The translations under genes and the position numbers were made by a program. The notes beneath the pieces are model-generated. The model worked only from the letters and a program-made list of their open reading frames with translations, ran no database searches and was not told where the DNA came from. This document shows positions 1 to 59,857 of a DNA stretch of 64,000 nt, piece by piece (positions within the stretch are counted from its first letter, which is position 1; every line of letters starts with the position of its first letter). This stretch comes from Gammaproteobacteria bacterium (GTDB lineage: Bacteria > Pseudomonadota > Gammaproteobacteria > Competibacterales > Competibacteraceae): contig JADLEK010000053.1 in assembly GCA_020846135.1 (NCBI GenBank), positions 124,001 through 188,000 on the forward strand, in the 5' to 3' direction.

Positions 1-1365
1 CAGTTGCTCGATAGCGGGCAACACTTCGCCATTCAGGTAGTGGTATTCAGCCATCGTCGCGTGAGTCGCCGCCAGATCGCCGGCCCGTTGCGCAGCCTGA
101 GCGTAAGCCGCATACAGCGCTGGATCGTTAGGTCGGCGGCGCAGGTGCGGTTGCAATAATTTCAGCGCCCGTTTTGGATCGCCCTGGGTAGCCAGCGCTC
201 GCCCATAGCTCATCGCCAGAGTGAAATCATCGGGATACAACTGACGGGCCTCCTCGAACAGCCGCCACGCCTGATCCCGGTCGCCCTTGGCCAGCGCGAT
301 CTCCGCAGCCTCAAGCCGAAACGTCAGCCGATCCGGATCGCTCTTGAGCAGGCGGGTCATCTGCTGCTGCGCCTCGTCGTAACGACCCGCCTGGCGCAGC
401 GCCAGCGCATAGGCATAGCGATCCGCCAGATCATTTGCTGAACCACCTTTGGCCTGCACCGTTTCCAGATTGCGGATCAGGGTTCGATTGTCATCCGTCG
501 CCAGCACCAGCGCCCGGGCCTTGGCCAGTTCATAGGCTTTGCCGTCGCGGGGGACATTGCGGCGCAATACCGGAATCTCAACCCGATCCTGGGTGTCAGC
601 CACCCGGTTCGCTGGGCGGGGATGGGTCAGCAACATTTCAGGAATCTGGTTGCGCGCCTCGCCGCTGCCCTGACGCTCCAGCTTGACGAAGAAATCGCTC
701 ATGCCCCGGGGATCAAAGCCGGCCTTGGCCAGCAACTGGGATCCAACCCGATCCGCTTCCTGCTCATTAACGCGGGTAAAGCTGATCTGATGCTGGGCAC
801 TGGCGGCCAGCGACCCCATCATCGCCGCCTGCCCGGCCTGTTTGCTGGCCGCCGCCAGCGCGGCTCCGGCCAGCATCGCCGCCGCCAGCGGCAGGGTCAT
901 CCGCTTGGAATCGGCAATGGCGCGAACGATGTGCCGCTGCGAAACGTGGGCGATTTCATGAGCCAGCACCCCCGCCAGCTCGTCTTCGCGCTGGGTCGCT
1001 AGCAGCAGACCTACGTTGATGCCGATAAAGTTGTGCGGCAAGGCAAAGGCGTTGATGTCGTTATCGCGAACCATGAAGAAGGTATAGGGAACGCCATTCT
1101 GATCGGCGTAGGTGACAATGCTCTGGCCGATGGAATTGATGTATTCGGTCAACTGGGCGTCATCCAGAATCAGATCCCGCTCACGCAGTTTTCTCATGGT
1201 TTCCAGCCCCAGTTTCTGTTCCTCATCGGGGCCAAAATCGACCTGGGAGGCATCGCCCATGTCGGGCAGGCGGATGGATTGCGCGGTGGCGGGCGCGGCA
1301 GGCGACAGAGCCAGAATCAGGCTGAGGCTGAGGCTGAGGCTGAGGGAAATCAGGCGATAGCGCAT
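1..1365 (-). CDS. bepA: Periplasmic M48 metalloprotease/chaperone BepA (YfgC), 3' end outside window
   Basis: Zinc metalloprotease of the M48 family with a C-terminal TPR domain, which in enterobacteria works with the BAM complex to assemble or degrade outer membrane proteins such as LptD. The visible 455 residues begin with a signal peptide (residues 1-29, ending at AAPATAQ). The zinc motif HEIAH lies at 136-140, with the downstream NEQEADR supplying the third ligand. TPR-like helices fill the second half. The ATG at 1365 is the only sensible start because an in-frame stop lies about 30 bases upstream. E. coli BepA has about 487 residues, so roughly 30 C-terminal residues are missing beyond base 1. 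The signal peptide contains a Ser-Leu run made by a hexanucleotide repeat. lptE and bamD elsewhere in the window belong to the same envelope-assembly theme. Confidence 0.9.
   Translation of the reverse strand, partial: MRYRLISLSLSLSLSLILALSPAAPATAQSIRLPDMGDASQVDFGPDEEQKLGLETMRKLRERDLILDDAQLTEYINSIGQSIVTYADQNGVPYTFFMVRDNDINAFALPHNFIGINVGLLLATQREDELAGVLAHEIAHVSQRHIVRAIADSKRMTLPLAAAMLAGAALAAASKQAGQAAMMGSLAASAQHQISFTRVNEQEADRVGSQLLAKAGFDPRGMSDFFVKLERQGSGEARNQIPEMLLTHPRPANRVADTQDRVEIPVLRRNVPRDGKAYELAKARALVLATDDNRTLIRNLETVQAKGGSANDLADRYAYALALRQAGRYDEAQQQMTRLLKSDPDRLTFRLEAAEIALAKGDRDQAWRLFEEARQLYPDDFTLAMSYGRALATQGDPKRALKLLQPHLRRRPNDPALYAAYAQAAQRAGDLAATHATMAEYHYLNGEVLPAIEQL
1321..1344. repeat. Hexanucleotide tandem repeat GCTGAG x4 inside the bepA signal peptide
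   Basis: Four perfect copies of GCTGAG encode the alternating Ser-Leu core of the BepA signal sequence on the minus strand. Gain or loss of a unit would change the hydrophobic core by two residues without shifting the frame. Confidence 0.85.
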
Positions 1366-1429
1366 GGGATTTTCGCTGAGCGGAATAGTGTTTCTAAGAC
1401 TTGAGATTCTGTGGGGCGTTCCCGCTACG

Positions 1430-1700
1430 ACGGCATCAACCAGAAATGGATCTGCCTACAGCGGGTTCTGATTCAGGGACAAGAACGGGAGCATTACTCC
1501 GTTGCATCAACCATGACATTCTATTCCACGGCTGACTTCCTGCCTCATCGAGGCTGCCCAGGGGTACGGCTTGGTTTTCGCCACTCAAATTCCCCACGGG
1601 TGGGGACCTTTACGCCGATGAGGCGACCGTATGTTCCCCCAGGCCTCACGCCCTCTCTGCAAGCGTTACTTCCCGCCCAACAGACGGTAGGTCCCTGAGA
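1430..1700 (-). ncRNA. Structured non-coding element, possibly an orphan IS605/TnpB-type omega-RNA end
   Basis: This is most of the 446-base gap between bepA and meaB and holds no convincing gene. It is rich in inverted repeats: GCCTCATCG (1542-1550) pairs with CGATGAGGC (1616-1624), CCCCAC (1592-1597) pairs with GTGGGG (1600-1605), and GGTACGG (1563-1569) could pair with CCGTAT (1627-1632), which would form a pseudoknot. It shares a motif order with 58070-58240: a GATTC/CTGA stretch, then a GCATTACT hairpin loop, then GCCTCATCGA followed by CAGGGG. The second copy carries a hairpin that I associate with the right ends of IS605/IS1341-type elements. No tnpB is adjacent. The RNA identity is inference; the structure and the shared motifs are visible. 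Confidence 0.35.
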
Positions 1701-1772
1701 ACGGAGAATGTTTTAGATGAAAAGGCCATGAAAGCCAACAAATTTTTCAGTGGCTGTCAGCCCCATGTCAGC

Positions 1773-1778
1773 TATAAT
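1773..1778 (+). promoter_or_regulatory. Possible -10 element for meaB
   Basis: A perfect TATAAT lies 34 bases upstream of the meaB ATG. I see no good -35 hexamer at the usual spacing, so the assignment is weak. Confidence 0.3.
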
Positions 1779-1811
1779 CCTAGGCATTATTCCAACGCAT
1801 AAAGACGATTC

Positions 1812-2939
1812 ATGAACGACATTAATCAGCGACCCGACTGGGTTCCGGAAAACGCCGGTGCGGAATTCACCACCTCGGTCATGAGCGGCGTCGAAGGCGG
1901 CCATGATGGCCTTCGCGGCCAGGCCAGCATAGCCATGCCGCGTTCTCACACTCCGCGCCGGCGACGGTTGACGGTCGACGAATATGTTGCCGGGGTCCTG
2001 GCGGGCGACCGTAATATCGTCGCGCAAGCCATCACCTTGGTCGAAAGCAACGCCCTGGCCCATTTTGATCAGGGCCAGGAAGTGCTACGGCAACTGCTGC
2101 CTTATACCGGCCGTTCGATCCGGGTCGGCATTACCGGGGTGCCGGGCGTTGGCAAAAGCACGTTCATTGAGGCGCTGGGCCTGCACCTGTGTGAACAGGG
2201 CTGCAAAGTCGCGGTGCTGGCGGTGGACCCCAGCAGCACCGTGACACGCGGCAGCATTCTCGGCGACAAAACCCGCATGGAACTGCTCTCCCGCGACCTG
2301 CGCGCCTTCATCCGGCCCTCCCCTTCCAGCGGCACACTGGGTGGGGTCACCCGCAAGAGCCGCGAAACCATGCTGATTTGCGAGGCGGCCGGCTTCAACG
2401 CGATCCTGGTGGAAACGGTCGGAGTGGGTCAAAGCGAAACGACCGTGCGGTCGATGGTCGATTTCTTCCTGCTACTGATGCTGGCCGGAGCTGGTGATGA
2501 ATTGCAGGGCATTAAAAAGGGCATTATGGAGCTGGCCGATGCGCTGCTGGTGAATAAAGCCGATGGCGATAATAAAATCCGCGCCAACGCTGCCCGCTCT
2601 GATTACAACCGTGCGCTGCATTACATGGCCCCAGCAACGGAAGGTTGGCGCACCCAGGCTTATACCTGCTCGGCGATGAGCGGCGATGGGATTACCGCCA
2701 TCTGGCAAGTAATCAACGACTTCCGCCGACAAACAGCCACCAGTGGTGTGTTTGAACAGCGCCGGCAACGGCAAACCCTGGATTGGGTTTATTCCATGGT
2801 CGAGGAACATCTGCGGGCCAGTTTTTTCAATCACACCGGAGTCGGCAGTATTCGCGCTGATGTCGAAGATGCTGTGGTTCAAGGGCATTTACCGCCTACC
2901 GTCGCAGCGCAAATGCTGATTCGGAAATATGAAAGCTGA
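1812..2939 (+). CDS. meaB: MeaB/ArgK-type P-loop GTPase, methylmalonyl-CoA mutase chaperone
   Basis: G3E-family GTPase that protects and reactivates adenosylcobalamin-dependent acyl-CoA mutases (methylmalonyl-CoA or ethylmalonyl-CoA mutase). The Walker A motif GVPGVGKST is at residues 109-117. The VDPSS segment, the ETVGVGQSE switch region and the NKAD base-recognition motif follow in the order expected of the family. The product has 375 residues against about 330 for E. coli ArgK. The extra length is a basic N-terminal tail of about 40 residues, so translation could instead begin at the internal ATG at 1935. The ATG at 1812 has only a weak ribosome site (AAAGACG). No mutase gene is in the window. 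The next gene is the CoA-ester lyase mcl, which fits one acyl-CoA assimilation route. Confidence 0.9.
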   Translation: MNDINQRPDWVPENAGAEFTTSVMSGVEGGHDGLRGQASIAMPRSHTPRRRRLTVDEYVAGVLAGDRNIVAQAITLVESNALAHFDQGQEVLRQLLPYTGRSIRVGITGVPGVGKSTFIEALGLHLCEQGCKVAVLAVDPSSTVTRGSILGDKTRMELLSRDLRAFIRPSPSSGTLGGVTRKSRETMLICEAAGFNAILVETVGVGQSETTVRSMVDFFLLLMLAGAGDELQGIKKGIMELADALLVNKADGDNKIRANAARSDYNRALHYMAPATEGWRTQAYTCSAMSGDGITAIWQVINDFRRQTATSGVFEQRRQRQTLDWVYSMVEEHLRASFFNHTGVGSIRADVEDAVVQGHLPPTVAAQMLIRKYES

Positions 2940-56533: not shown

Positions 56534-57934
<1,401 letters not shown>

Positions 57935-58069
57935 GCAGTACTGGTGAACAGCGTACTTGGCGGTAAAAAACCCTAGGAACCGGTAGCGGGTCCCCGAGCG
58001 GGCGATCAGGTCAACTTCACCGACGGTGACTCCCGGATCGTGCTGGTCGCCGGCGAGGGTTTTGAGCAA

Positions 58070-58240
58070 GCTCTTGACATCCTCCCCGCCCTGAAGGACG
58101 GGGATTCCTGACTCACTGTCGGGTAAGGAAGTGGCATTACTGCCACTCCCTCCCCTGAGAACCGTACTTGAAAGTTTCCATTCATACGGCTCAAGCCTCA
58201 TCGAAGCCCTCTTTCACAGGGGCCGGTTTCGTAGTCTTGC
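58070..58240 (-). ncRNA. Orphan structured element: IS605-type end hairpin plus group II intron domain V-like stem
   Basis: The gap after purB (57935-58345) has no gene. Read on the minus strand it contains a perfect 34-base domain-V-like hairpin (58159-58192): arms GAGCCGTA/TACGGTTC with a GAAA tetraloop. Next comes a hairpin with stem AGTGGC/GCCACT (58133-58150), then the arms CCCCGTCC/GGGCGGGG (58077-58098) followed by AGGATGTCAA. That last hairpin is what I remember from the right ends of IS605/IS1341 (TnpB) elements. Several motifs recur in the same order at 1430-1700. No tnpB or intron reverse transcriptase is adjacent. Whether this is an intron tail, an omega-RNA remnant, or a composite is undecided. 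Confidence 0.4.
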
Positions 58241-58345
58241 TAATAATAATCCCCATATTTTTATAATTAAACTAAGTCTGAGTTTAGTTGTCTGAATGTT
58301 ATAAAGACCCATTGAGATAATGCACTATATTGGAGGAGTGCTGCT

Positions 58346-59395
58346 ATGAACGCTGAGTGGATGTCTGATGCCCGTAAAATTCCAGATGAAGTCATGAATT
58401 ACATCCGGAGAATTGCAGTTAGCGCCATAGAAGAAAAGGGATTTAGCCCAGAGTTAGTCGCTAAATTATTCGGTATTGATCGAACCAGCATTTATGACTG
58501 GCTCCGCAAGTATCGTCATAAGGGAGAAGTCGCACTGGATACCGGCAAAGCCCCAGGGGCTGATTGGGTGATCACCCCGAAGATTGATCAATGGCTGAAA
58601 GAAACGATCTTAAATACGACACCTGCCGATCATGGTTACGATACCGTTTTATGGACGTTGGAAATTATCGTTAATTTATTAAAGGAGCGCTTTAATCTAT
58701 GGGTATCAGATGCCACAGTACGAATCCATTTACATCACTTAGGATTAAGCTGCCAGAAACCATGTTACCAAGCGTTAGAACAGGATCAGGAGCGAGTTAA
58801 AAATTTTGTCAATAAAGAATTCAAAGATATTCAGAAACTTGCACAGGAATTAGGGGCAGATATTGCGTTCGAAGATGAGTCTTGGGTCCAAGGCAACACT
58901 CGTTCGGGACGAACATGGGGTTTAGTCGGTCAGTCACCACCCGTTAAAGTATGTGATGACCGTGGAGGCTTTCATGTTTTATCCATGGTGACCGCTACTG
59001 GAGAATTGATATTTGAGGTCACCACTGAAAAACTCGTCAGTGAAGTCTTCACTCGATTTTTAGAACATGCATTATCTGGACGAACCCGCCCATTAATCGT
59101 CGTTACCGATAATGGGTCTTTTCATACCTCGAATGCGGTGAAAAAGTTTATAGCAGATCATCAGCAAAAAATCCGCTTATTCTTTTTTCCGCCTCATTCA
59201 CCGAAATTAAATCCTGATGAACAAGTTTGGAATGAAATTAAAAATCGTCAACTAGAAAAGCAGCCTATTAAAAACCGGGTTGATTTTGAGCATCGAGTCT
59301 GCTCTGCTTTAGTGAAGCTAAAGGTTTTTAAGGAAAGAATTATGGTTCATCGTGGTTTGTTGTGGAACCAGTCCCACCTCAGCGAGGCGATCTAG
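58346..59395 (+). mobile_element. IS630-family transposase
   Basis: A 349-residue transposase of the IS630/Tc1-mariner group. An N-terminal helix-turn-helix (LVAKLFGIDRTSIYDWLRKY) is followed by the DDE catalytic core: Asp177 (IAFEDESW), Asp255 (VVTDNGSF) and Glu292 (LNPDEQVWNEI). The ATG at 58346 has a GGAGGA site. The AT-rich composition differs from the chromosome. The last 17 residues (from MVHRGLLWN) look like flanking DNA read into the frame, because the same sequence recurs inverted 100 bases downstream. I could not identify clean terminal repeats with TA duplications, so the element's ends are not defined. Confidence 0.88.
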
Positions 59396-59496
59396 CTAAC
59401 CTATTGATTGGCAATGTCCCAGTGTAAATTTCAACCCTCTTGATGGGGTAAAACCGGCTTTACAGGACAAATTCCACAACAACCCGCGATGAACCA
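59343..59496. repeat. Inverted repeat pair flanking the IS630 3' end
   Basis: The 25 bases at 59343-59367 and at 59472-59496 are inverted copies matching at 23 of 25 positions. Both lie in reading frames that translate as VHRGLLWN. They may be insertion-sequence ends or the remains of a second, oppositely placed copy. Confidence 0.6.
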
Positions 59497-59611
59497 AAAT
59501 AGAACCACAGTAAATATGAAGATTTTGATCTTGCCATTCAACTCGATCCACTTGGATTTCATTAATCCCTAAAATCGACTCAAAAACTTCTGATTCTGTC
59601 ATTGGAGTCAC
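59396..59611 (-). pseudogene. ISL3-like transposase fragment (N-terminus only)
   Basis: A 71-codon frame beginning MTESEVFESILGINEIQV and EWQDQNLHIYCGS resembles the first 35 residues of ISL3-family transposases. The zinc finger that should follow is missing, replaced by the inverted-repeat sequence shared with the IS630 end. It is therefore a truncated remnant. The 246 bases after it, up to 59857, hold nothing I recognise. Confidence 0.5.
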
Positions 59612-59857
59612 CCTCTCATTTCACTTTGACTTTAACAACAAAACAGATCAAAGAAGATTTGATGCACTTAAATGATACATGCCCGCACTCGACTCCACAA
59701 GAACTCTCGAAGAACCTCTTGGGAGCAAATGTTGAAAATTCAAAGCCTACCCTCATTTGAGATCTCGTTTAAAGATCAGTAAGTTGGAGAACAATTGGAC
59801 TGAACCAGTACCCACCAGCGAAAATGGCCTCGAAACCCCGATCATGCGTCACCCGAA

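What the first reader, a model, noticed from the sequence alone, without database searches (positions are those of the whole stretch)
58159..58192. Perfect 34-base group II intron domain V-like hairpin without an intron
On the minus strand the hairpin has the domain V length, an 8-base lower stem (with a G-U pair), a GAAA-capped upper stem and an adjacent domain VI-like stem ending in ACCCGAC. It sits directly beside an IS605/TnpB-type end hairpin. No reverse transcriptase frame or upstream intron domains are visible. A retained catalytic-core piece fused to a transposon end would be unusual; alternatively this is how a class of omega-RNA folds.
Basis: partly seen in the sequence, partly recalled or inferred. 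Interest (0 to 1): 0.5.

Follow-up and report, generated by a model that had tools for sequence, protein, structure and literature searches.

The report
Truncated group II intron in transposon remnant
The hairpin is the leftover 3' end of an ordinary mobile group II intron that once inserted into a TnpB transposon and was later cut off by another insertion sequence, so it is most likely a genomic relic and not a new kind of RNA.

Summary
In detail: window 58118-58194 (-) matches Rfam RF00029 (group II intron D5-D6) end to end, 61.2 bits, cut-off 40. It resolves into two ordinary parts. (1) 58118-58231 (-) is the 3' end of a mobile group II intron: last 12 codons and stop of its reverse transcriptase, D5, D6. 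A same-genus genome holds the full intron, with RT-maturase-HNH protein and D1-D4, 93% identical over the shared stretch. (2) From 58117 downwards lies the 3' end of a tnpB element. Five loci in four related genomes have the uninterrupted site ...CTGGCTCTRA^AGTGAGYCAGGAATCC, placing the insertion inside the last sense codon of tnpB. Upstream, the intron is cut at 58231/58232 by the left end of an IS630-family element. The draft genome shows no RVT_1 match, no match to the rest of the relative's intron (no positive control) and no close copy of this tnpB. D5 is not quite 'perfect': its upper stem holds a U-U mismatch. No support for an omega-RNA fold or a functional fusion. Low interest.

The parts
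58118..58231 (-). 3' end of a group II intron (truncated copy)
   Evidence: 93% identical to same-genus G026 over query 30-144 = window 58231-58117 (alignment); RF00029 61.2 bits over 58118-58194
58191..58229 (-). last 12 codons and stop of the intron RT ORF (KPAPVKEGFDEA*)
   Evidence: read from the sequence; equivalent to the end of the G026 RT ORF ...KPVPVKRGFAEA*
58159..58192 (-). domain V (34 nt), with one U-U mismatch in the upper stem
   Evidence: RF00029, fold
58118..58158 (-). linker, domain VI and the intron 3' terminus ACCCGAC
   Evidence: RF00029, fold, shared 3' boundary in relatives
58073..58117 (-). 3' exon: end of a tnpB element (rest of the last sense codon, stop, right-end hairpin)
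   Evidence: five loci in four related genomes read through ...LALK* of TnpB into this stretch at 95-98% identity; the TnpB of L038 matches NF040570 at 227 bits
58232..59338 (+). IS630-family element, left end at 58232 (TA); transposase ORF starts at 58346; right end not found
   Evidence: NF033545 206.7 bits; L052 aligns from 58232; nine places in G019 and G037 match query 1/2/3 to 29/30 (one to 36), i.e. stop at 58232/58231; protein homology of L053 stops at residue 331, about 59338
59339..59500 (.). ~160-bp MITE-like repeat with 36-nt inverted ends, overlapping the 3' end of the transposase ORF (which runs to 59395)
   Evidence: inverted arms; 22 other places in the genome at 94-100% identity, several cut by contig ends

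Best explanation
This is a nested mobile-element relic. A retrohoming group II intron (RT-maturase-HNH type) inserted in sense orientation into the last sense codon of an IS200/IS605-type tnpB gene (CTG A^AG TGA), just before the right-end hairpin. An IS630-family element then inserted near the 3' end of the intron's RT ORF, at a TA. The 5' part of the intron and nearly all of tnpB were lost. What remains (end of the RT ORF, D5, D6, 3' exon hairpin) should not splice in cis because D1-D4 are gone. Shown: intron identity, 3' boundary, empty site in relatives, left end of the IS630 element, no RT found in the draft genome. Inferred: the order of events, the deletion, and the lack of function.
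For: RF00029 over its full model. Full intron with RT, D1-D4 (RF02012) and D5-D6 in same-genus G026. In one search the window and four relatives share the sequence up to ...CTTACCCGAC plus one A and then diverge. Five of the eight relative loci given to one search have an uninterrupted tnpB 3' end at exactly this point. The IS630 homologue L052 begins to match at 58232, and nine short matches in G019 and G037 stop at that point, eight of them at query 29 or 30. No RVT_1 match in G000; the control rang in 3 of 14 genomes. One RF00029 match in G000. No D1-D4 family over cut-off in the window, although RF02012 finds D1-D4 in G026.
Against: The 5' exon and the 5' end of the intron are missing, so the insertion is inferred from one boundary. 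In one search the base after the intron end is A in 9 of 14 places (counting the window once) and not A in 5, so the boundary is not uniform in all look-alikes; several of those 5 look like decayed or partial copies. One IS630 relative, L055, aligns from 58226, six bases beyond the proposed end, and L053, L054 and L056 gave no alignment at the left end. The genome is a draft of 83 contigs, so parts could lie in gaps. The DNA search for the remaining intron in G000 had no positive control. Three of the eight loci carry the hairpin without the tnpB end.
Confidence: 0.95

Rival explanations
1. The D5-like hairpin is part of an omega-RNA scaffold of a TnpB class.
For: It abuts a tnpB right-end hairpin. 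A below-cut-off match to RF02656 sot0042 (21 bits, cut-off 88) covers 58083-58129.
Against: The five uninterrupted tnpB ends found lack the D5-D6 stretch. D5-D6 relatives occur with other 3' exons, and 9 of 30 loci examined have an RT match.
Confidence: 0.01
2. It is part of a circularly permuted or trans-splicing group II intron whose D1-D4 lie elsewhere.
For: Circularly permuted bacterial group II introns have been described (PMC8637638; only the start of the abstract seen, in the listing).
Against: No D1-D4 family reaches cut-off in the 64-kb window, and none appears at E up to 1 in 57900-59800; RF02012 does match the intact relative. The relative's 5' part and RT gave no match in G000 (no positive control), nor did RVT_1.
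Confidence: 0.02
3. The D5-D6 remnant has been kept for a new role, for example to stabilise or terminate a neighbouring transcript.
For: It still folds well (z -6.95).
Against: Strong folding is inherited from the intron (the intact copy folds alike). It carries a U-U mismatch in D5 where four relatives have G, and it lies among other mobile-element remains. Conservation at this place was not tested beyond (0 matches to the junction pattern).
Confidence: 0.03

Closest known systems
Group II intron, Rfam RF00029 (D5-D6) with RT of NCBIfam TIGR04416
   Same: D5-D6 sequence and fold, end of the RT ORF overlapping D5, 3' terminus ACCCGAC
   Different: 5' truncated: no D1-D4, no RT, no 5' exon; one U-U mismatch in D5
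IS200/IS605-type tnpB element (NF040570 guided_TnpB)
   Same: right-end hairpin and the end of the tnpB gene 95-98% identical to relatives over 44-45 nt
   Different: only the last bases of tnpB and the right end remain

Membership tests
Group II intron (RF00029) | D5 34-nt hairpin and D6, model score over the cut-off | tested here: met
   61.2 bits, cut-off 40, model 1-77/77
Group II intron | D1-D4 upstream of D5 | tested here: not met
   no D1-D4 family over cut-off in the window; the intact relative matches RF02012 at 99.9 bits. So this is a fragment, not an intron.
Group II intron | RT-maturase ORF (optional) | tested here: not met
   only the last 12 codons remain; no RVT_1 match in G000
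Group II intron | splicing activity | not testable with these tools
   no RNA data
IS200/IS605-type tnpB element | tnpB gene | tested here: not met
   only its last bases are here; the TnpB of L038 found 3 matches elsewhere in G000: 36% identity over residues 175-368, 43% over 287-369, 73% over 274-299, so no close copy
IS200/IS605-type tnpB element | right-end hairpin matching intact relatives | tested here: met
   95-98% identity over 44-45 nt in the five loci with an uninterrupted tnpB end
Omega-RNA containing D5-D6 | D5-D6 present in intact tnpB relatives | tested here: not met
   absent from the five uninterrupted tnpB ends
IS630 family (upstream neighbour) | DDE transposase of the IS630 family | tested here: met
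   NF033545 206.7 bits, cut-off 100

The most novel reading that the evidence does not exclude
The intron lineage may have used the tnpB 3' end, within the omega-RNA region, as a homing site, so that intact copies would have to splice out before a functional TnpB end and omega-RNA could form, coupling two RNA-based mobile systems.
Probability: 0.04. Interest if true: 0.5.

Novelty: new member of a known kind. Interest (0 to 1): 0.1.

Why it matters
It matters little by itself. It shows that a strong D5 hairpin without a visible RT is readily explained by truncation and nesting of mobile elements. [quoted passage not shown]

Tried and rejected
Omega-RNA reading: rejected on the empty sites. Circularly permuted intron: no D1-D4 over cut-off in the window and no match of the relative's 5' part and RT in G000 (no positive control). 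The same junction in other species: a pattern scan of genome contigs found 0. A looser pattern found 1, in a Mycobacterium record, where no RF00029 match reached cut-off; I take it as chance. The tool notes that very near genomes may be left out of those scans. Below-cut-off Rfam matches near the site (two plastid group II D5 families, HgcC, Sso133, two mir families, sot0042) were not counted as membership. A search for papers with omega RNA, TnpB and group II intron together gave one (listing only); its title is about circular forms of omega-RNAs in archaea. An alignment of the IS630 transposases failed and was dropped.

Full report
Observation. The hairpin at 58159-58192 (-) is a group II intron domain V. 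RF00029 covers D5 and D6 together at 58118-58194 (-), model positions 1-77 of 77, 61.2 bits against a cut-off of 40, and is the only Rfam match above cut-off in the 64-kb window. In the draft genome (G000, 3.7 Mb, 83 contigs) it is the only RF00029 match found (150 of 160 first-look candidates scored). Folding supports it (77 nt, z -6.95). The D5 upper stem holds a U-U mismatch; the four relatives aligned have G there, and the intact copy pairs.

The intron. A DNA search of 39 genomes of the family with window 58060-58260 (-) matched 25 of 39. The matches fall into three stretches: the intron end (up to query 143-145, window 58118-58116; other than the window itself in G026, G013, G028, G016, G037 and G001), the hairpin side (from about query 137-148 on; 22 of the 38 other genomes, some matches only 23-30 nt), and the IS630 left end (query 1-30; nine places in G019 and G037). 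The best intron-side match, 93%, is in same-genus G026. There the stretch is preceded by an RT ORF. The 512-aa part of it that was scanned matches RVT_1, GIIM and HNH in Pfam and TIGR04416 at 377.8 bits; D1-D4 (RF02012, 99.9 bits) and D5-D6 (66.7 bits) flank it. The G026 RT ends ...KPVPVKRGFAEA*. The window keeps the equivalent KPAPVKEGFDEA* at 58229-58191, whose stop overlaps the first bases of D5. The window and the four relatives share the 3' end ...CTTACCCGAC plus one A and then diverge, as expected of an intron boundary. In the wider set the next base is A in 9 of 14 places.

The 3' exon. In five of the eight relative loci given to (L038 and L041 of G028, L042 of G038, L043 of G027, L045 of G030) the sequence that begins at window 58117 directly continues a tnpB gene ending ...LALK*. 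The uninterrupted site reads ...CTGGCTCTGA^AGTGAGYCAGGAATCC in four of them and ...CTGGCTCTAA^AGTGAG... in L041. The other three loci (L039, L040, L044) have the hairpin without that tnpB end. The L038 protein (376 aa) matches NF040570 (guided TnpB) at 227 bits; the other TnpB proteins were not scanned. So the intron inserted in the sense direction inside the last sense codon of tnpB, shortly before the right-end hairpin.

The upstream cut. A homologue of the neighbouring IS630-family element (transposase ORF 58346-59395, NF033545 206.7 bits) aligns with the window from 58232 (L052), and L052 and L055 share the end motif TAGTC...CTAATA. L055 aligns from 58226, six bases further; L053, L054 and L056 did not align at this end. 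Of the nine places in G019 and G037 that match this end, eight stop at query 29 or 30 (58232 or 58231) and one at 36. The intron homology ends at 58231. That IS630 elements insert at TA is recalled; the end here begins with TA. The rest of the intron is not on the other side: transposase homology runs to about 59338 (L053), where a ~160-bp repeat begins. G000 has no RVT_1 match, no match to L046:2100-4333, the RT and 5' part of the G026 intron (no positive control), and no close copy of the L038 TnpB.

Context. RF00029 matches at E 0.001 or better occur in 16 of 39 family genomes, 59 places in all (in most genomes only 90 first-look candidates were scored, so these are lower bounds). Of the 30 loci returned, the window's own included, 9 had a tblastn match to the G026 RT; for several of the others less than 150 nt of upstream sequence was held, and unlike intron lineages may have an RT too distant for this query. 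Truncation and nesting are normal for bacterial group II introns (PMC4424553, passages seen).

Verdict. This is a truncated group II intron in a decayed tnpB element, cut by an IS630-family element. There is no support for an omega-RNA fold and no sign of a functional fusion; lack of function is inferred, not tested.

Noticed in passing
window 59339-59500: A ~160-bp MITE-like repeat with 36-nt inverted ends; 22 other places in the own draft genome at 94-100% identity and one at 77%, several cut by contig ends. It overlaps the 3' end of the IS630-family transposase ORF.
   Followed up: partly
window 59589-59700: A second repeated stretch: five other places in the own genome at 96-97%, plus one copy (98%) that spans both repeats. 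The small ORF 59396-59611 (-) beside it looks like a transposase N-terminus cut by the 160-bp repeat (impression only; no Pfam match).
   Followed up: no
L094 (G028 C25) positions 554 and 1334, minus strand; L093 (G028 C71) positions 2016 and 1985, minus strand: Introns of the same lineage apparently nested in domain VI of other copies at one point (GGGGAGG^): L094 has two 5' ends, each preceded by the end of D5 and the start of D6; L093 has a complete intron end followed at once by a D6 tail. They look like twintrons; nested introns are described in Methanosarcina acetivorans (PMC4424553, passage).
   Followed up: partly
L099 (G016 C17) 1199-2010, minus strand: An 812-nt copy of the same intron lineage with D1-D4 (RF02012, 129.5 bits) and D5-D6 (61.6 bits) but no RT match, i.e. 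an ORF-less form.
   Followed up: partly
L039, L040, L044: Copies of the tnpB right-end hairpin that are preceded not by the tnpB end but by other sequence, partly alike between them by eye; possibly non-autonomous derivatives.
   Followed up: no
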